64,000 nt of DNA from a virus, in the IMG/VR virus record IMGVR_UViG_3300046820_001584, positions 21,741 through 85,740 of that record. One strand, given 5' to 3'. This document shows positions 32,063 through 41,477 of this stretch, one piece after another. The stretch's first letter is position 1. Every line of letters begins with the position of its first letter. The notes under the pieces are model-generated. The model saw only the letters and a program-made list of their open reading frames with translations, made no database searches and was not told where the DNA came from. The translations under genes were made by a program, and so were the position numbers.

Positions 32063-33175
32063 TTACTTCTCTTCTAGTGCTTTAACTCTCGCTGTAAGCT
32101 CTTGTACTGCTTTAATTAATGGAGCAATAAATTGGTCATATCTAAGTCCCTGCATAGAGTCTTCTTCTGACATATCCATTTTTACCCAGCCTGCAAAATC
32201 TGCAACTCCAGACTCATCTAAAACTGTTTTTACTTCTTGTGCAATAAGTCCATAGTGGGTTCTTGATCCAGGAATTGAAACAATATCTCCGTCTACTATT
32301 TCTTTTCCGCCTTCAATAAACTTATAGCTTACTGGATTTAGATTATTAATAAAATTAAGGCCTAGTTGAGATGATGTAATGTCAGTCTTTAGTCTTTGAT
32401 CTGATGTATTAATAGTTCCAGTGTTTGAGTATATTGTTTTCCAAAATCTATTTGAGCTAACTCCATTAGGAACGTCTGTTGGCTGACCAAGATTATAAAG
32501 GTTGTTTGCAATTGGATACCAGTTAGAGTTTACGCCAAATCCTGCTGAGGTTGGTATATTTAAACTTATTGTTGTTGGCACTGGATCTATAGTTGCGCTT
32601 GATCCAGGAATTCCTTGTGGTCCCGTGGCACCCGTGGCACCCGTGGCACCTCTTGGAATTGTAAATGCAAAAACGGCATTTGCAGACGTGCCAGTGTTGG
32701 TTACAGAAGCGCTTGTTCCAGCTGCACCTGTTGTAGTAGTTCCAATAGCTAGAGTGGTTGGACCCTGCGGGCCAGCGGGCCCTTGCGGACCCTGTGGACC
32801 TTGTGGTAAAACTAGATTTAATGTTTGCGATGGGCTGGTGCCAGTTATTGTTGCATTAGCTGAAGCTCCGCCAACAACGGTACCTATATTTAAAACATTA
32901 GAAGGGCCAGGCCCACCAATAATTCCATCAATACCTCTAGGCAATGTTAAGTTTAATATAGCATTAGAAGATGTTCCAACATTTGTAACTGCTGCTGGAG
33001 TACTTGCGCTAACGGTGGTTACTGTACCTATTGCTAAGGTGCCTGAAGGGCCCTGTGGGCCTGGATTAGCAGCAATGAAGGTTGCAATGTCAGCACCAAG
33101 GTTTCCAAGGTCTCTAGGGACGTCTGGGGTGTCTGTATAGTCTGGAAATCTCCAGCCGTTTACTCCTGTGCTCAT
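32063..33175 (-). CDS. Collagen-like tail fibre with S74 chaperone
   Basis: 370 residues. Short Gly-x-y runs occur at about 38-45 (GPQGPS), 125-140 (GPQGPQGPAGPQGP) and 180-200 (GATGATGATGPQGIPG), separated by repeats rich in Thr/Ala/Ile such as 'AIGTVTT'. The C-terminal 115 residues are an S74 intramolecular chaperone starting 'TSDQRLKTDI' (Ser nucleophile) and ending in a heptad helix. It is followed in the operon by four P4H-like oxygenases and could be their substrate. Confidence 0.85.
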   Translation of the reverse strand: MSTGVNGWRFPDYTDTPDVPRDLGNLGADIATFIAANPGPQGPSGTLAIGTVTTVSASTPAAVTNVGTSSNAILNLTLPRGIDGIIGGPGPSNVLNIGTVVGGASANATITGTSPSQTLNLVLPQGPQGPQGPAGPQGPTTLAIGTTTTGAAGTSASVTNTGTSANAVFAFTIPRGATGATGATGPQGIPGSSATIDPVPTTISLNIPTSAGFGVNSNWYPIANNLYNLGQPTDVPNGVSSNRFWKTIYSNTGTINTSDQRLKTDITSSQLGLNFINNLNPVSYKFIEGGKEIVDGDIVSIPGSRTHYGLIAQEVKTVLDESGVADFAGWVKMDMSEEDSMQGLRYDQFIAPLIKAVQELTARVKALEEK

Positions 33176-33195: not shown

Positions 33196-33846
33196 CTACT
33201 TAATATATACGTGTGCTGGGCTCATATATCTGGTGCCAGAAATAATTGGCTTTACTTCATGAATATATGGCTCCTGCGAAGGAAACATTATCATGCTTCC
33301 AGCCTTTGGCTTAACGGTAACATTGTGATTTGGAAAGCTAATTTCTCCGCCTTCGTAGTCGTCGTTTATATATGCTACCAAAGAAAATGCTAGATCTGCA
33401 TTACCATCTTGTCCGTCAAAATGTGGACCCATAGACTGTCCTTCATTCCAAGCCTTAATAGTGGTGTTATCTAAATTTAAATTATATTTACTTTTATCTA
33501 GCTTGTGTCCTTCTAGGTATCTATCGGTACACATTTCAAATGCCATTAGAAAGCTATTTGCTATATACAAAGTTTTTTTATCTACCACATCTGATCCAGT
33601 AGATTCTTTTAACTTAGACTTATTAATATTTTTCGTTTTCCCGTAAATTAATTCTTTGTCGTCGCTTGCTGTCCAATTTTCCCATTTAGATATTCTAGAA
33701 TAAGACTGTGGCTCTTCATCAATTTTGTCAATAAATACTTTTAGCTCTTCTGGAAAACTTAATGCATTTTCCCAGTACCAAATTTGTGGTCCAAGAACCT
33801 TAAGGTCAAACATTATAAATTGTTTAAACTCAATATTGTTTTGCAT
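33196..33846 (-). CDS. Fe(II)/2OG oxygenase, P4H-like (1 of the cluster)
   Basis: 216 residues with H142-F-D144, H196 and R206 as metal and 2-oxoglutarate ligands and the conserved 'YINDDYEGGEISFP' strand (159-172). 1-nt overlap with the next gene. It lies 20 nt from the collagen-like fibre gene, so Pro or Lys hydroxylation of virion protein is one likely role. Family certain; substrate not. Confidence 0.9.
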   Translation of the reverse strand: MQNNIEFKQFIMFDLKVLGPQIWYWENALSFPEELKVFIDKIDEEPQSYSRISKWENWTASDDKELIYGKTKNINKSKLKESTGSDVVDKKTLYIANSFLMAFEMCTDRYLEGHKLDKSKYNLNLDNTTIKAWNEGQSMGPHFDGQDGNADLAFSLVAYINDDYEGGEISFPNHNVTVKPKAGSMIMFPSQEPYIHEVKPIISGTRYMSPAHVYIK

Positions 33847-34595
33847 TATTCTACTTCCTTGGCTGGATATTTTTCTCCAGTTGCAGTAATACGTAGTCCT
33901 TGATTACGAATTTCTTCCCATTCGACAGCTTCTGTTTTTTGATATGCTCTTACTTCAGCAAGCTCAGCTGCCCAAGCGTCTCTTACTTCTTGTGGATAGT
34001 CTGATTCTTCTCTGTCATCCCAAAAAGATCCAAGGGTATATCTAATTGCTTTCTTTACGGTTGTAACTTCATGAGTATTTTCAAATCCACCCGCAAATGT
34101 AGCCATGCTTCCAGTCTTTGGAATAATTGTTAATCCGTGCTTAAAATTTAAAACTCCGTCTTCAAAGTCATCATTTAAGTAAATAAATGTTGCGTATCTG
34201 CTTCTTGTAAATGCACCAGAGTTTCCGTCATTGTCTGTGTTATCTGAATGCATATTTGCAAATGCGCCAGGTGCCCATCTCTGAGAGTGCCAACTAATTT
34301 GTGACATTTGCTCAGGATTTTTACCAGCCATATCGGCTGTTGCGTCAATTACTCTTTGTCTTAGTACTTGAAAAAAATCTCCTGGCAATCCGCAAGCAAT
34401 TGTATCTGGATCATTGACTTCTGGCATACCAGATGAATATGATTCATAGAAAGAAATAGGCATCCACTTCAATTCTTCTTTTTGCATTTTTATGTCTAGG
34501 ACTTTAATAATTGCAGCGCACTCTTCTGGAGTCAAGAAATTGTCATATACAACTATATCTGATTTATGTCTTGTTACAACCATGTCTCTTTCCAT
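33846..34595 (-). CDS. Fe(II)/2OG oxygenase, P4H-like (2)
   Basis: 249 residues. H116-S-D118 in a well-formed site ('FANMHSDNTDND'), H175 and R185, with 'YLNDDFEDGVLNF' (139-151) replacing the usual EGGE. Overlaps the previous gene start by 1 nt. The C-terminal extension (about 200-249) is helical and acidic. Confidence 0.88.
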   Translation of the reverse strand: MERDMVVTRHKSDIVVYDNFLTPEECAAIIKVLDIKMQKEELKWMPISFYESYSSGMPEVNDPDTIACGLPGDFFQVLRQRVIDATADMAGKNPEQMSQISWHSQRWAPGAFANMHSDNTDNDGNSGAFTRSRYATFIYLNDDFEDGVLNFKHGLTIIPKTGSMATFAGGFENTHEVTTVKKAIRYTLGSFWDDREESDYPQEVRDAWAAELAEVRAYQKTEAVEWEEIRNQGLRITATGEKYPAKEVE

Positions 34596-35410
34596 TATTC
34601 ATTTTCTCCCTTTATATTAGCAAGATCATCGTAAAGTGTTGGTACACCATTTTCCAAATATCTCATGTTTCTTGGATCTTCGTATTTAATTCTTTCCGCT
34701 TCCATTTGAGCCCATTTATATGCACCATAAGTTTTTTGATTATTTAGCCATTCTTTTGTTCCATCGAACGGTGTCATAACAAAGTTTCTTACAAAAAACT
34801 TTTCGTTATTTTCAATAGTTTTAACTCCGTGGTAGTATGGCTCTGTAGATGGAAATACTAAAATATCTCCAGAAACTGGCTTATGATTAATAAGCTTGCC
34901 GTCTACAAAAAATTCAATATCTCCTCCATCATAATCGTCATTTATATACATAGTACATGTTATTGAAAACTTGTCTCCAGGCATATCTTTTTGAGACGTT
35001 ATGTGGTCTGTATGATACTGCATTGTCATTTTATTATCTAGAGTGTTAATTTGTGGATTATACTTTGAATAAGAGCATCCGCTAAATCTCCAGCCTTCTG
35101 GCAAATCAATATTGTGTCTTTCTACGTAGTCCATTAAAACTGCATGATAGGCAGCCTCAACTTCTTCTACAAAATTCTTTTCTTTAATAAACATTTCATC
35201 TGACTGCTGATCATCAGATATCTCCATTGGATTCTTTTTTTGTGTATAAGTGCCAAAGTGTGCCCATGGATCCCATGTCTTTAAAAAATGCTTGCCCTCT
35301 GAAGTTTTTTCAGACTCTTTCATTACTTCGTACATTTTTTGTGGATCAGTAAGAACATCTCTGTAAACTTCTACATTTGGATAAATCTCTATATAGTTTA
35401 ATTTGCTCAT
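34595..35410 (-). CDS. Fe(II)/2OG oxygenase, P4H-like (3)
   Basis: 271 residues. H133-T-D135, H194, and K204 in place of the usual Arg ten residues later; K is also seen in prolyl-4-hydroxylases for 2OG binding. 'YINDDYDGGDIEFFVDG' (155-171) conserved. Longer than its neighbours, with extra helices before and after the core. Overlaps the next start by 4 nt. Confidence 0.88.
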   Translation of the reverse strand: MSKLNYIEIYPNVEVYRDVLTDPQKMYEVMKESEKTSEGKHFLKTWDPWAHFGTYTQKKNPMEISDDQQSDEMFIKEKNFVEEVEAAYHAVLMDYVERHNIDLPEGWRFSGCSYSKYNPQINTLDNKMTMQYHTDHITSQKDMPGDKFSITCTMYINDDYDGGDIEFFVDGKLINHKPVSGDILVFPSTEPYYHGVKTIENNEKFFVRNFVMTPFDGTKEWLNNQKTYGAYKWAQMEAERIKYEDPRNMRYLENGVPTLYDDLANIKGENE

Positions 35411-36081
35411 GGTTGTCTTTCTCCTGTATGCTTAGATATCGTCCAAAAGAATGGAGATGTAAATCGATTGCCAGATTTTACTGGTCTTACCCCGTGAGTA
35501 TAATACATGTCTCCTGGGAAAAAATATGCTGCTCCTGCAACTGGCTGAAATTCAATTCCATGTTGTGGGAAATAAAGCTCTCCACCTTCATAGTCATCGT
35601 TAAAATAAAAAAGTCCTGCTAAATCGTACCAAGGGAAATCATTTGGTCTGCCTTTTTCTGGGCCAGAATGAAATTCTTTATCTGCATGAGGTTCTTGTCT
35701 TGCGCCAATTGGCCATTTAACAATTGCTGGACCAGTTTCTTTTGCATCAACGTCAAAAAATTTATCTACTTCGATCTTTAGTCTGTCAATCATGCTGTAA
35801 ATAAGTTCTAATATTGTTGGGTCTGAAGCCCGTAAAGAATTTATAGTGCATACTCTGTCTTCCCAAACTTTATGGTCATACAGCACAAGCCCGTCTTCGT
35901 CAACGTGTGTTTCTGTCACATCCCAAATTTTATTAGAAAGGGCAAAATCCATTAATCTTTTTCTTTCTTCTAATGAAAGAAAGTCTTTAATTTCTACAAT
36001 GTTATCTATGGAATTGCCAAAAAATCCAGAGGGTGTAATAGATACTGGTCTGTTGTCATGCCATTCGTTTTGAGGTTTCAT
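35407..36081 (-). CDS. Fe(II)/2OG oxygenase, P4H-like (4)
   Basis: 224 residues with H132-A-D134, H196 and R206 and 'FNDDYEGGELYFP' (160-172). A good SD (GGGAAGAAG) lies upstream of the start. 'THGVRPVKSGNRFTSP' is the standard distal-His segment. First of four tandem oxygenases. Confidence 0.88.
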   Translation of the reverse strand: MKPQNEWHDNRPVSITPSGFFGNSIDNIVEIKDFLSLEERKRLMDFALSNKIWDVTETHVDEDGLVLYDHKVWEDRVCTINSLRASDPTILELIYSMIDRLKIEVDKFFDVDAKETGPAIVKWPIGARQEPHADKEFHSGPEKGRPNDFPWYDLAGLFYFNDDYEGGELYFPQHGIEFQPVAGAAYFFPGDMYYTHGVRPVKSGNRFTSPFFWTISKHTGERQP

Positions 36082-36132
36082 TTTATCTTCTTCCCTTGGT
36101 AATTAATTTTACCATATTGTCGTTTATAATCT

Positions 36133-36843
36133 TTATTCTTCTTTATTCTTTTGGTTTACGCTTAGTCTTAATGCTTTTACCTGATGCTTGCCGATGGCAT
36201 TTTTTAAATGATCTACCGCATCTCTGTAGAAATTAGACCATACTCCAGACCTATTTAAATCGTAAATTATCTCAGAATATTTGTCTGAATCAAACTGGCT
36301 AGCTGGCATAGTAGACATTGGCTCAAAATTTATTTCTGACCCTTGAAGTGAGGCTAAGTCAATTGGCAAGATGGCTATAATTGGAGTTCCAGCCTTTATT
36401 GTTAAAATTTCATTTGGCTTAGTAATCATCCAGGCTACTGGAAGCTCACCTCTAAAAAAAGAAGTACTAATTAAAGTTGTAAATGGCACAGCGCCATCAA
36501 AAAAGAAATTTGGAACTGGCATAGAAAGAAGACTTAAGTTTTCTTCTGTTTTAAACATAAGCCCAGTATTAAAGCTTATAGTGCCATTTGCTCTTCCTGA
36601 ATATGCATACTTTTCGCCAGATAAAATTTTAACATGATCTGGACTTGCATCGCTTACTCCATCCCAAATAAAGCTTATGTCTTCTGGGAATGATATAGCC
36701 CATCCAAGCTGGTTTGTTAATCCCACTGGAAAACATTTATATGCATGTGCTTCCCAGGTGTCGTCCATCCATTTTCTTTTTATGGAAAGAGGTTCGACTA
36801 TTCCGTATCCGTCTCTTATTTCCCAAGCCTTTATATTATGCAT
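36133..36843 (-). CDS. DUF6065-like protein within the oxygenase cluster
   Basis: 236 residues resembling a family (DUF6065) found in aquatic phages and bacteria: 'CFPVGLTNQLGWAISFPEDISFIWDG' (about 37-62) and 'PIIAILPIDLASLQG' (about 174-188). No known catalytic residues. It overlaps the upstream oxygenase by 8 nt, hinting at co-translation. Its place among 2OG oxygenases suggests work on the same substrate. Confidence 0.6.
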   Translation of the reverse strand: MHNIKAWEIRDGYGIVEPLSIKRKWMDDTWEAHAYKCFPVGLTNQLGWAISFPEDISFIWDGVSDASPDHVKILSGEKYAYSGRANGTISFNTGLMFKTEENLSLLSMPVPNFFFDGAVPFTTLISTSFFRGELPVAWMITKPNEILTIKAGTPIIAILPIDLASLQGSEINFEPMSTMPASQFDSDKYSEIIYDLNRSGVWSNFYRDAVDHLKNAIGKHQVKALRLSVNQKNKEE

Positions 36844-37549
36844 ATGGGTTTTTGCCAGTTTTGGCGTCTTCCTCTACCCACTTAGATCTCATTTCCATAA
36901 ACTCTTGTCTGTGTTGATGATCGTTATAATCTAGCATTGTAACAATTGAAAATTTCATTCCAGATTTTACTGGCATTGCTCTATGAGAGAATAAATATGT
37001 TGATGGGAATATGTATAGGTCTCCAGCTTGTGGCTTAATGTCAAGACCTATCTTTGGAAAATATAAATTCCCGCCTTCATAATCATCGTTAACGTAAGCT
37101 ACAAGGGAGACGGTGGCGCTGTAAGAAAATCCATGATCTGCGTGTTCTTGAAAGTGTTGACCTTCCCCATAACGAATACAGTTCATAACTTCCCAGTAAT
37201 TCATTTTTACGTTGTGTTTCGAACAATAATCTTCTACTGCTGGATTTTGAGACTTTTTTAGGTCTTGCCATAAACTAGAAACTAATTTTTCTGTTTCTGT
37301 TCTTGGGTTTGGAATGTCTCCAACTTTAATGTCTTCACAATCTCTATAGTCTGGTCTTTTTTCGCTGTATCCAACAAAACCAAATGTCCATAAAAATCTA
37401 GAGTCGTTGTCTTTAATTGCCGACTCACCAATTTCATTAAGTCTTTCAATAACATTTAACTCTTTTTTAATTGCATTTCTATAAACCCAAACTCCTGGGA
37501 AAAGCTCTTCTTTTGAAGAAAATTTATATTTATCATTAATGTTATTCAT
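36836..37549 (-). CDS. Fe(II)/2OG oxygenase, P4H-like (5), leaderless start
   Basis: 237 residues, ligands H136-A-D138, H189, and K199 ('SGMKFSIV'). 'YVNDDYEGGNLYFP' (152-165). Its ATG lies 7 nt after a consensus -10 (see promoter), so its message probably begins at or next to the start codon. First gene of the oxygenase operon. Confidence 0.9.
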   Translation of the reverse strand: MNNINDKYKFSSKEELFPGVWVYRNAIKKELNVIERLNEIGESAIKDNDSRFLWTFGFVGYSEKRPDYRDCEDIKVGDIPNPRTETEKLVSSLWQDLKKSQNPAVEDYCSKHNVKMNYWEVMNCIRYGEGQHFQEHADHGFSYSATVSLVAYVNDDYEGGNLYFPKIGLDIKPQAGDLYIFPSTYLFSHRAMPVKSGMKFSIVTMLDYNDHQHRQEFMEMRSKWVEEDAKTGKNPYA

Positions 37550-37635: not shown

Positions 37636-38976
37636 CTAGTTTCTAATTATGAACGATTGTCCTAGAACTAGAACGTCTGGGTCAGTGAAGAATCTATATA
37701 CTATAGAGGCATCTTCTACTGTATCAATTGACTCTACTGCTAAGTACTTAATATCTTCGTCAGATCTATAAACTATCTGATCTCCAATTTGCATATCCGC
37801 TGGGGTTACAAATTTATAAGTATTTCCTCTAAGTGCTAGAATTTCTTCTTGCAACGAGAATCTTGCAGTGGCATCATTATTAACCATGAATGTCTTGTTT
37901 TGCAATGTGGCTTGTATTGAGAATATCTTTGACTCAATTACCTTTGAATTACCAAGATGTGTATCTTCCCATGTTGCTGGGTCGTACTCACCTTCATTTG
38001 GCAACTTATCAAATGATAAGCTTATTAGAATATCTCCAATTTTTATATCTTTAGCCATCTTGTAGCCTGTAGATGTAAGTATTAAAGTGTCTTCATTTAT
38101 GCAACCAAATCTTGGCGGTGCAAAGAAGCCAGGTGGGAAGAACGGTGGCGCAAAGAAGTTAGGTGGGAAGAACGGTGGGAAGAATGGTGGGAAGAACGGT
38201 GGGAAGAACGGTGGCGCAAAGAAGTTAGGTGGGAAGAACGGTGGCGCAAAGAAGCCAGGTGGGAAGAACGGTGGCGCAAAGAATGCGGGTGGGAAGAACG
38301 GTGGCGCAAAGAAGCCAGGTGGGAAGAACGGTGGCGCAAAGAAGCCAGGTGGGAAGAACGGTGGGAAGAACGGTGCCTGAGTTGTAATAGTTGCTGTATT
38401 AGCTGAGGCTGCTGAACGTCCATTAGCATTGTCTGCATAAACATTGTAATACTGTGATGTATTAGCGGCGTCATCAATTGTTGTAGATAACCCTGTTACA
38501 TTGTCTCTGCTTGTTCCATCATTACCAGCTACAAAATACTTGGTGATTGCTTTTCCACCATTTGCTGGAGCTGCCCATGAAATTGTATTCTGGTTAACGC
38601 CTGGAGTTGCTGATGGGCTTGTTGGAGCACTTGGAACTGTTGTTGCTGTAACAGCAGAAGCTGCTACTGCATTTGAATTGCTATCAAGGAAGCCATCATA
38701 AGATGATACTGAGAAAGTATAAGATGTTCCTCCTGATAATCCAGTTATTGTAGCGGTATTTGTGCCAAATGCAACTGTAGCTTTTACTGTTGCGCCGTCA
38801 TATACCTTGTAACCAGTTGGCGTATTACCATCAACTGGTGCTGTCCAAGATACTGTTACAGCACCGTCATTAAATGCTCTGTTGGTACCAATATCAGATG
38901 CCGTGACACCTGTTACTGGATTTGGTCCAATAAAGTTATCTTGGGCGGAAGATTTTCTACCTATATTTTTTGACAT
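37636..38976 (-). CDS. FN3 / proline-rich FFPPxFFAPP / C-terminal Hint-domain virion protein
   Basis: 446 residues. Two fibronectin-III domains (about 20-195), then an unusual Phe/Pro-rich run of FFPP and FFAPP units (about 203-290), then a Hint (intein/Hedgehog-type self-splicing) domain from C292 to the end. Hint features: C292 after Gly, 'TLILTSTGYKMAKDIKIGDIL', and a final 'YRFFTDPDVLVLGQSFIIRN' strand ending in Asn446. The block-B His and the penultimate His are missing (N and R), so splicing may be altered. The terminal Asn is the last residue, so there is no C-extein. Confidence 0.75.
   Translation of the reverse strand: MSKNIGRKSSAQDNFIGPNPVTGVTASDIGTNRAFNDGAVTVSWTAPVDGNTPTGYKVYDGATVKATVAFGTNTATITGLSGGTSYTFSVSSYDGFLDSNSNAVAASAVTATTVPSAPTSPSATPGVNQNTISWAAPANGGKAITKYFVAGNDGTSRDNVTGLSTTIDDAANTSQYYNVYADNANGRSAASANTATITTQAPFFPPFFPPGFFAPPFFPPGFFAPPFFPPAFFAPPFFPPGFFAPPFFPPNFFAPPFFPPFFPPFFPPFFPPNFFAPPFFPPGFFAPPRFGCINEDTLILTSTGYKMAKDIKIGDILISLSFDKLPNEGEYDPATWEDTHLGNSKVIESKIFSIQATLQNKTFMVNNDATARFSLQEEILALRGNTYKFVTPADMQIGDQIVYRSDEDIKYLAVESIDTVEDASIVYRFFTDPDVLVLGQSFIIRN
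38112..38373. repeat. 30-bp tandem repeats coding for FFAPPFFPPG
   Basis: About seven near-identical 30-bp units (GGTGGGAAGAACGGTGGCGC followed by AAAGAAGCCA on the plus strand) plus shorter 12-bp pieces encode the Phe/Pro-rich run. High identity suggests copy number can change by slippage or recombination. Confidence 0.85.
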
Positions 38977-38996: not shown

Positions 38997-41477
38997 TTAC
39001 GCTTTCAAGTCTCCAGCTAACAACCAAGTTGTTGCTGCGACTTTTGTGGCTGTCACTGATGAGTTTGTTGTTCTAAGTGTTGCACCTGGTGTTGCAAGAA
39101 TTGTAACTCCAGATCCAGTTATGTTAGCACCAGTACCTGATGACTGGTAGAAGTTAATTGAAGAACCAATTGCATACTTAGCATTTCCTGTTGCTTCAAA
39201 GCTTACGTTTACTGCTCCTGATAGAGGGACCAATGAGTCTCTTACTGCGGCATCTGTTCCAAGTGCATCTAATGTTGAGTTAGATGAAACAGCTGTTGCT
39301 ATTGTTGTAAGTGATGGTACACCAGCCCGTGTTTGAACCTTATCTGTAAATGCTACTCCAGCTGCTGCAACTGTTACTGTTCCAGTAAATGTTGGGCTAG
39401 CGATTGGTGCCTTTGCTGCAAGTCCAGTTGTAACTGTTGAAGCAAAGTTTGCGTCATCACCGAGTGCTGCTGCAAGTTCGTCAAGGGTATTGAGTGCTGC
39501 TGGGGCTGATGCAATTACTGCATTTACCTGAGCTGTTGCATCTGCAATAGCCTCTGACTTAGCAGTTGCAATTGCTGAAGCCTGTGCTGTAGATACTGGC
39601 TTAGCTGAGTCTGCTGTATTATTAACATTTGCAAGTCCTACTGAAGACTTTGTAAGTGCTGCTACCGCAGTTGAAACCTTTGTATCTGCTGCTGTTCCAG
39701 CTGCAGTAATAGCTTCTGACTTAGCAGTTGCTACATTTGCTGTAGTTGCTAGAAGTGAAGTATCTGCAATGCCGTGAATGTTTGTTGTATCTGATTCGTG
39801 ATTTGAAAGTGCTGTAGCTGCTGAACCAAATTGTGACTGCACAGAAGATGAAATTCCATCAAGATAACCTAGTTCTGTTGAGCTAAGATTTCCAATTGAT
39901 GTTGTGCTTGGTAGCACTACTGTTCCTGTAAATGTTGGACCATCTAATGGGGCAAGGGCTGTTAGTGAAGCTCCTAGTCCGTCAATTTTACTTTGAGCAA
40001 TTGCTGCGGTAGGGCTAATGTCTGCGTTTACAATTGTTTCATTTGTAATTTTATCAGATGTAATTGCTCCATTTATAATGTTTACTGTATTTATTGAGTT
40101 AGCTGCAACCTTTGCAGCAGTTACTGATGAGTCAGCAATCTTTGCAGTGCTAACTGCGCTGTCGGCAATCTTTCCATTTGATACTGATAAAGCTGCAATT
40201 TTGGCTTCAGTTACAGCATTTGTTGCAATCTTAGATGAAGTTACAGCATCTTCTGCAATCTTCTCTGTAGTGACTGCAAGTCCACCAATTTCATTTGTTC
40301 CAACAGAATCATCAGAAAGATGAGACTGGGAAATTGAATTAGCTGCAATCTTTTCTGCAGTAACTGCATTGAGTGCAATTTTAGCTGTAGTGACTGCATT
40401 TGGAGCAATCTCAGACTCTCCAACTGCATTGTCTGAAATCTTAGCGGCTGTAATTGAGTTGTCTGCAATCTTGGCTGCTGTTACTGCATTTTCTGCAAGA
40501 TTTGCTGCAACAATTGATCCGTTTGGCAAAACTATTGTTCCAGTTAATGTTGGGTTATTTAGAACAGATTCTGTTGACTCTAATCTTCCAACTGCTATGG
40601 CATCTAATGATCCCTGTGTAAAATCAACTGTGGTTGTAGGCTCTGTTGTAACTCCCTTAAATAACTTCCACTTGTCTTCTGAAGCATCACGCACAAATCC
40701 AGTGTGATTAAATGTTCCAGTGTTATGACCAGCAACAAAACCTAAGTCAAGCATTCCCGACTGGTTTGCTTTTGCCATAAGAAGCATTGTGTCTTCAATC
40801 GCAAAGTTTTCGGTGTTAATTGTTGTCATTGTTCCATTGACTGCAAGATTACCGCTAATTGTAACATCCTTAGCAAATAAGTCTCCAGTTGTTGAAATGT
40901 CTGTAGTAAGAGAGCCTAGTGGCAACTCTGACTGTAAAATTTTAGTATTTGAATCTAACGAAGCAACTCCGCCTGCAGTTCCTCTATCTCCTGTTTCTAG
41001 GTATCCTGATAGTGAGCTGTTTAATCCGCTTACTGCAGTGTCAGTGTAATCTTCTGCAGCAGATATTGCTGCAGCCTGTGCTGCATTTGCTTTAGTAGTT
41101 GCATCTGACGCAGCTGCTGCGATTGCTTCTGATTTAGCATTTGCTGCTTTAGTGTTTGCTTCTGATGTAGCAAATGTTTTTGTTGAAACTACATCTGTGT
41201 CTACAGTTATAGTAATTGTATTTGCACCATCGTTATAAGTCTTTGTTAAACCTGCGCCCATTGTTAAGGCTGTGTTAATTGCATCTTGGGAAATTTCACC
41301 AATTGCTACATCTGAGTTGTTGGCATATGCTAGGGCTGTCCATGTAGCTGTTCCATTACCAAACTTAAATAAATTAGTGTTTGTTTCAACACCCATTTCA
41401 CCTGCAGCTAATACTGGATTTGCTGTGGTCCATTCAGAGGCTGTACCTCTTCTTACTTGAATTCTTACTGTTGACAT
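38997..41477 (-). CDS. Tail fibre with Mtd-like N-terminus and KID-type repeats
   Basis: 826 residues. N-terminal segment 'VRIQVRRGTASEWTTANPVLAAGEMGVETNT...KFGNGTATW' is a conserved fibre-attachment domain shared with the 46387 gene. Middle (about 320-480) has repeated 'NAVTAAKIADNSITAAKI' units; a second half carries Ala-rich coil repeats and a C-terminal beta unit. Typical receptor-binding fibre stalk. Confidence 0.82.
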   Translation of the reverse strand: MSTVRIQVRRGTASEWTTANPVLAAGEMGVETNTNLFKFGNGTATWTALAYANNSDVAIGEISQDAINTALTMGAGLTKTYNDGANTITITVDTDVVSTKTFATSEANTKAANAKSEAIAAAASDATTKANAAQAAAISAAEDYTDTAVSGLNSSLSGYLETGDRGTAGGVASLDSNTKILQSELPLGSLTTDISTTGDLFAKDVTISGNLAVNGTMTTINTENFAIEDTMLLMAKANQSGMLDLGFVAGHNTGTFNHTGFVRDASEDKWKLFKGVTTEPTTTVDFTQGSLDAIAVGRLESTESVLNNPTLTGTIVLPNGSIVAANLAENAVTAAKIADNSITAAKISDNAVGESEIAPNAVTTAKIALNAVTAEKIAANSISQSHLSDDSVGTNEIGGLAVTTEKIAEDAVTSSKIATNAVTEAKIAALSVSNGKIADSAVSTAKIADSSVTAAKVAANSINTVNIINGAITSDKITNETIVNADISPTAAIAQSKIDGLGASLTALAPLDGPTFTGTVVLPSTTSIGNLSSTELGYLDGISSSVQSQFGSAATALSNHESDTTNIHGIADTSLLATTANVATAKSEAITAAGTAADTKVSTAVAALTKSSVGLANVNNTADSAKPVSTAQASAIATAKSEAIADATAQVNAVIASAPAALNTLDELAAALGDDANFASTVTTGLAAKAPIASPTFTGTVTVAAAGVAFTDKVQTRAGVPSLTTIATAVSSNSTLDALGTDAAVRDSLVPLSGAVNVSFEATGNAKYAIGSSINFYQSSGTGANITGSGVTILATPGATLRTTNSSVTATKVAATTWLLAGDLKA

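What the first reader, a model, noticed from the sequence alone, without database searches (positions are those of the whole stretch)
37636..38976. C-terminal Hint domain with terminal Asn on a proline-rich virion protein
The Hint domain starts with Cys292 after Gly, keeps the TLILTSTGYKMAKDIKIGDIL core and ends in Asn as the final residue, so it has no C-extein. The catalytic block-B His and penultimate His are changed (N and R). It may cut itself off, attach the FFPP run to a cell-surface nucleophile (Hedgehog-like), or be a dead linker.
Basis: partly seen in the sequence, partly recalled or inferred. Interest (0 to 1): 0.75.

Follow-up and report, generated by a model that had tools for sequence, protein, structure and literature searches.

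The report
Intein-fold cap on phage tail adhesin
A phage tail protein built of Phe-Pro repeats ends in a domain with the fold of self-splicing inteins that has lost most of its catalytic residues but keeps its starting cysteine; it belongs to a large family in environmental phage sequences, and its gene sits next to a likely proline-modifying enzyme.

Summary
The 446-residue protein (37636-38976, minus) is fn3 + an 86-residue Phe/Pro repeat + a C-terminal Hint domain that starts at Cys292, its only cysteine, and ends at Asn446. The fold is secure: AlphaFold2 pLDDT 92, Z 15-16 to bacterial intein-like domains, inteins and Hedgehog. One detail is wrong: the block-B His is replaced by Glu377 (SLQE in place of TxxH), not Asn. 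Splicing is ruled out because there is no C-extein. The Hint caps a large family of repeat adhesins in viral contigs. In 68 relatives found only through their repeats, residue 1 is Cys (56) or Ser (11), the block-B pair stays S/T (65) and H/Q/E (67), while the C-terminal His-Asn is lost in many ways. I read it as a C-terminal cap whose only possible remaining chemistry is at Gly291-Cys292; whether it cleaves is undecided. The downstream gene encodes a prolyl-hydroxylase-like 2OG oxygenase. That family is present in 148 of 205 loci with FFxPP-repeat genes and in 0 of 130 with only FGFSP-repeat genes, so the repeats are its likely substrate. Attachment to the host surface is unsupported. New variant of a known kind.

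The parts
37636..38976 (-). gene for fn3 / FFxPP-repeat / Hint-capped protein, 446 aa
38692..38871 (-). fibronectin type III domain (residues 36-95); a second fn3 stretch follows, roughly residues 116-199 (38380-38631, boundaries inferred)
   Evidence: Pfam PF00041 E 8e-12, 2 stretches
38113..38370 (-). Phe/Pro repeat (FFPP, FFAPP, FFPPG), residues 203-288, 36 F + 36 P of 86
37639..38103 (-). Hint domain, residues 292-446
38101..38103 (-). Cys292, first residue of the Hint domain; invariant in 71 aligned relatives and the only Cys of the protein
37846..37857 (-). block-B equivalent S374-L-Q-E377, in place of TxxH
37639..37644 (-). Arg445-Asn446, in place of His-Asn; end of the protein
36836..37549 (-). 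companion 2OG-Fe(II) oxygenase, prolyl-hydroxylase-like, next gene downstream
33196..36081 (-). four further 2OG-Fe(II) oxygenase genes in a row
38997..41477 (-). upstream tail-fibre gene with Mtd_N domain

Best explanation
It is a C-terminal Hint-fold cap (closest solved folds: bacterial intein-like domains and mini-inteins) on a repetitive phage tail adhesin. Shown: fold, position, residue losses, purifying selection, family distribution. Inferred: it sits where other phage fibres of the same repeat class carry a peptidase S74 chaperone cap, so it probably folds or caps the fibre end during assembly. The C-terminal half of the intein active site has decayed and nothing follows the Asn, so splicing and C-terminal cleavage are excluded. 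The N-terminal half (Cys1 nucleophile, S/T hydroxyl, H-bonding residue H/Q/E) is kept across the family, so the most likely remaining chemistry is a slow, single-turnover N-S acyl shift at Gly291-Cys292, with the thioester hydrolysed to release the cap. The proline repeats are probably hydroxylated by the adjacent oxygenase.
For: Hint fold. Cys1 is the only invariant column of 71 diverse domains, with 0 changes on a tree of length 42.7 where the median site changes 20 times. In 68 caps retrieved only through repeat patterns, residue 1 is C 56, S 11, lost 1; B:7 is S/T 65; B:10 is H 26, E 23, Q 18, T 1; the last two residues are HN 31, YN 12, HD 7, YH 5, IA 4, FD 4, others. Hints of the close clade are under purifying selection, dN/dS 0.10-0.16. 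An S74 chaperone occupies the same position in L069, and another window fibre has S74. Inteins that lack the block-B or penultimate His can still splice through compensatory changes (PMC7664689).
Against: H, Q and E interchange at B:10 even between close sisters (L182 H, L183 Q), which argues against a demanding catalytic role. No biochemical data exist. Coordinates of the model were not available, so the geometry of Cys292 and Glu377 was not checked. Most seed-based relatives were found with patterns that overlap conserved motifs, so only the repeat-based set is free of that bias. A cap role is inferred by analogy.
Confidence: 0.45

Rival explanations
1. Catalytically dead Hint domain kept as a purely structural C-terminal cap or binding module; the protein is never cut.
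For: Both catalytic His are lost, with Glu at B:10 and Arg at the penultimate position. H/Q/E exchange freely at B:10. C-terminal residues vary widely. Rare relatives decay further (L119, L127).
Against: Cys1 never changes in 71 relatives and is Cys or Ser in 67 of 68 unbiased ones, which pure structure does not predict.
Confidence: 0.38
2. Cys292 has another role, such as an inter-chain disulfide in a trimeric fibre, unrelated to Hint chemistry.
For: Only Cys in the protein and invariant in the close family.
Against: Ser replaces Cys in 11 of 68 relatives, which fits a nucleophile better than a disulfide.
Confidence: 0.08
3. Hedgehog-like ligation: a Cys292 thioester passes the fibre onto a nucleophile on the host surface or on another virion protein.
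For: Cys1 is retained and the C-terminal half of the active site is not needed; Hedgehog Hint is a structural match (Z 15.1).
Against: No acceptor-recognition region follows the Hint; no acceptor is suggested by the neighbours; the same cap sits on unrelated repeats.
Confidence: 0.05
4. Active intein or A-type BIL that splices or cuts at its C-terminus.
For: Terminal Asn retained.
Against: Nothing follows Asn446; the penultimate residue is Arg; block-B His is Glu.
Confidence: 0.01

Closest known systems
Bacterial intein-like (BIL) domains, e.g. C. thermocellum 2lwy and T. thermophila BUBL1 BIL2 6y75
   Same: fold (Z 15.7-15.9), Cys1, no +1 nucleophile
   Different: block-B His is Glu, penultimate His is Arg, no residue after Asn
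Phage NCTB tail proteins BN7874_136 and BN7874_132, and Erwinia phage pEa_SNUABM_7 gp117
   Same: C-terminal Hint cap on a tail protein; homologous domain (E 5e-8 to NCTB)
   Different: intact TxxH and HN, short C-tail, collagen-like or other stalk instead of FFxPP
Uncultured Caudovirales 'Hint domain containing' and 'Fibronectin type III' proteins in BFVD (A0A6J7WKC1, A0A6J5MFV5)
   Same: same domain, TM 0.92-0.94
   Different: automatic annotations only; no functional study found
Hedgehog autoprocessing domain (1at0)
   Same: fold, C-terminal position, Cys1, needs only the N-terminal reaction
   Different: no TxxH here, no sterol-recognition region after the Hint
Peptidase S74 intramolecular chaperone caps of phage fibres
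   Same: C-terminal cap at the same place on an FFxPP protein (L069) and on a fibre in this window
   Different: unrelated family; S74 self-cleavage is known (own knowledge), here cleavage is unproven

Membership tests
Hint superfamily | Hint fold over the whole domain | tested here: met
   AlphaFold2 pLDDT 92; 84 chains with Z >= 8, top hits inteins, BILs, Hedgehog
Hint superfamily | nucleophile (Cys/Ser) as first residue | tested here: met
   Cys292, invariant in 71 relatives
Intein (class 1) | block-B TxxH | tested here: not met
   S374-L-Q-E377; rare active inteins lack this His (PMC7664689)
Intein (class 1) | penultimate His + terminal Asn | tested here: not met
   Arg445-Asn446: the Asn is kept, the His is not
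Intein (class 1) | C-extein starting with Cys/Ser/Thr | tested here: not met
   protein ends at Asn446
A-type BIL | C-terminal His-Asn motif followed by non-nucleophile | tested here: not met
   RN at the very end; many relatives do have HN + K/L/A
B-type BIL | intein motifs except the C-terminal one | tested here: not met
   block B lacks His
BIL (any) | autocleavage activity | not testable with these tools
   needs expression
Hedgehog Hog domain | sterol/acceptor recognition region after the Hint | tested here: not met
   protein ends with the Hint
Prolyl 4-hydroxylase (companion gene 36836-37549) | 2OG oxygenase fold and HxD...H iron triad | tested here: met
   H136, D138, H189 invariant in 50 homologues; Z 19.9 to algal P4H with Ser-Pro peptide
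Prolyl 4-hydroxylase (companion gene 36836-37549) | hydroxylates proline in a peptide | not testable with these tools
   only genomic association

The most novel reading that the evidence does not exclude
The fibre is matured by two phage-encoded modifications: the adjacent prolyl hydroxylase modifies the FFxPP repeats, and the Hint cap cuts itself off (or forms a thioester) at Cys292 with Gln/Glu doing the work of the block-B His. This would give many phage 2OG-Fe(II) oxygenases a substrate: the proline repeats of their own adhesins.
Probability: 0.25. Interest if true: 0.85.

Novelty: new variant of a known kind. Interest (0 to 1): 0.62.

Why it matters
It defines a large family of Hint-capped aromatic-proline-repeat adhesins in environmental phages, which appear only as automatic annotations in the databases searched. 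Nature has varied the Hint active site many times here while keeping the first nucleophile, a good test of what the N-terminal reaction needs. The link between FFxPP repeats and an adjacent prolyl-hydroxylase-like enzyme gives a directly testable substrate for phage 2OG-Fe(II) oxygenases, which are common and whose role is unclear.

Tried and rejected
Single-sequence Pfam and PDB searches of the Hint region gave nothing; only a family profile and the model did. No relatives in genome contigs, so the host stays unknown. The apparent loss of Cys1 in eight rows was an alignment artefact caused by an insert; all eight have Cys. Absolute invariance of Cys1 was tempered: an unbiased sample shows Ser in 11 of 68. 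A phylogenetically controlled test of FFxPP against oxygenase neighbours had only 2 supported independent pairs and no power, so that association rests on raw counts. Literature: no paper found with 'FFPP' in a phage sense (the one hit is unrelated); the phiCbK and CBB papers treat ordinary terminase/RNR inteins or their absence.

Full report
Observation. The gene at 37636-38976 (minus) encodes 446 aa: fn3 sequence (Pfam PF00041, E 8e-12, two stretches), an 86-residue Phe/Pro repeat (36 F, 36 P; residues 203-288) and a C-terminal domain from Cys292 to Asn446. The block-B His is replaced by Glu377, not Asn: RFSLQEEI aligns without gaps to RFSLEHTV in L099.

Is it a Hint domain? Alone it hits nothing in Pfam or the PDB. 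tblastn against phages finds a tail protein of phage NCTB annotated as containing an intein domain (E 5e-8). A profile of 71 relatives hits PDB 2lwy (bacterial intein-like domain, E 2e-8) and inteins, and individual relatives hit Intein_splicing, PT-HINT and Hint_2. The AlphaFold2 model (pLDDT 92, pTM 0.85) has VIA Z 15.9 to BIL2 6y75 and DnaB intein 1mi8, 15.7 to 2lwy, 15.1 to Hedgehog 1at0. BFVD holds uncultured Caudovirales proteins named 'Hint domain containing' at TM 0.94.

The family. Scans of viral contigs gave many relatives: fn3-type sequence followed by aromatic-proline repeats (FFxPP, or FGFSP-type) and a C-terminal cap. On FFxPP proteins the cap may be Hint, a Cys-rich tail, a very short tail such as GFK, or a peptidase S74 chaperone (L069). 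Repeat number varies: L003 keeps three units where close relatives have many. NCTB, Erwinia and Alcaligenes phages carry Hint caps with intact TxxH and HN on collagen-like and other stalks.

Active site. In 87 distinct full-length caps Cys1 is always present, B:7 is S/T, B:10 is H 18, Q 41, E 28; the C-terminal pair is HN 56, YN 17, YH 5, IA 4, RN 3, VN 1, IS 1; C-tails are 0-34 residues. Cys1 is the only invariant column of 71 diverse sequences and has 0 changes on a tree of length 42.7, against a median of 20. Because some of these were found with motif-based patterns, I repeated the count on 68 caps found only through their repeats: residue 1 is Cys 56, Ser 11, lost 1; B:7 S/T 65, V 3; B:10 H 26, E 23, Q 18, T 1. 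The N-terminal half of the active site thus keeps its chemical character while the C-terminal half is lost in several ways. The window's clade is the extreme: Glu at B:10, Arg-Asn at the end, no C-tail. Its Hint region is under purifying selection (dN/dS 0.10-0.16).

Mechanism. Splicing and C-terminal cleavage are excluded by the lack of anything after Asn446. What remains is N-terminal chemistry at Gly291-Cys292 or none. Inteins without the block-B or penultimate His can remain active through compensatory changes (PMC7664689), so the loss of the His does not settle it. The position of the domain, shared with S74 chaperone caps, suggests an assembly or capping role; this is an inference by analogy. 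I put N-terminal processing at 0.45 and a dead structural cap at 0.38.

The neighbour. The next gene, 36836-37549, is a 2OG-Fe(II) oxygenase with an invariant HxD...H triad in 50 homologues. Its nearest solved sequences are Bacillus prolyl 4-hydroxylases (E 8e-7), and the model's best structural match is algal prolyl 4-hydroxylase with a Ser-Pro peptide (Z 19.9, 172 residues, 2.2 A), followed mostly by prolyl hydroxylases. This oxygenase family (>200 bits) is present in 148 of 205 loci with an FFxPP gene and in 0 of 130 loci with only FGFSP genes (loci not de-duplicated). For any 2OG gene within 3 kb, distinct genes only, the counts are 57/68 against 11/53. Among distinct Hint-capped genes with enough flank: 59 FFxPP with, 6 without; 5 non-FFxPP with, 40 without. 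A tree-controlled test had too few supported pairs to decide. The simplest proposal is that the enzyme hydroxylates the PP repeats of the adhesin beside it; this is not shown.

Limits. The window's record is an 85.7 kb virus contig of unknown host. No coordinates of the models were available, so active-site geometry is untested. No experiment supports any activity.

Noticed in passing
window 33196-37549: Five 2OG-Fe(II) oxygenase genes and one DUF6065 gene lie in a row downstream of the Hint gene; all five oxygenases keep HxD...H. Nine 2OG-type ORFs are detected in the window in all.
   Followed up: partly
window 36836-37549; loci: The companion oxygenase family co-occurs with FFxPP-repeat genes (148/205 loci) and not with FGFSP-only loci (0/130).
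   Followed up: yes
L015-L132: FFxPP proteins end in many different caps: Hint, Cys-rich tails, very short tails such as GFK or SFK, S74 chaperone.
   Followed up: partly
L296, L301, L306, L321, L343, L352: A sub-family with Ser as residue 1, block-B His kept, and His-Asp in place of His-Asn at the end.
   Followed up: partly
L142, L145-L147, L156-L166: Relatives ending AYNGC...: the Asn is followed by Gly-Cys and a short tail.
   Followed up: no
L064, L099, L102 and many of L179-L258: Intact His-Asn caps are followed by 1-5 residues (longer in a few), nearly always with a Lys at +1 or +2 (HNK, HNLKMF, HNRKYFA).
   Followed up: no
L005 6483-6944: NCTB carries a stand-alone Hint remnant gene (BN7874_135) right after the Hint-capped tail gene.
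   Followed up: no
L110, L130: Two Hint-capped paralogues in one locus.
   Followed up: no
window 32063-33175: Another fibre-like protein in the window carries a C-terminal peptidase S74 chaperone domain.
   Followed up: no
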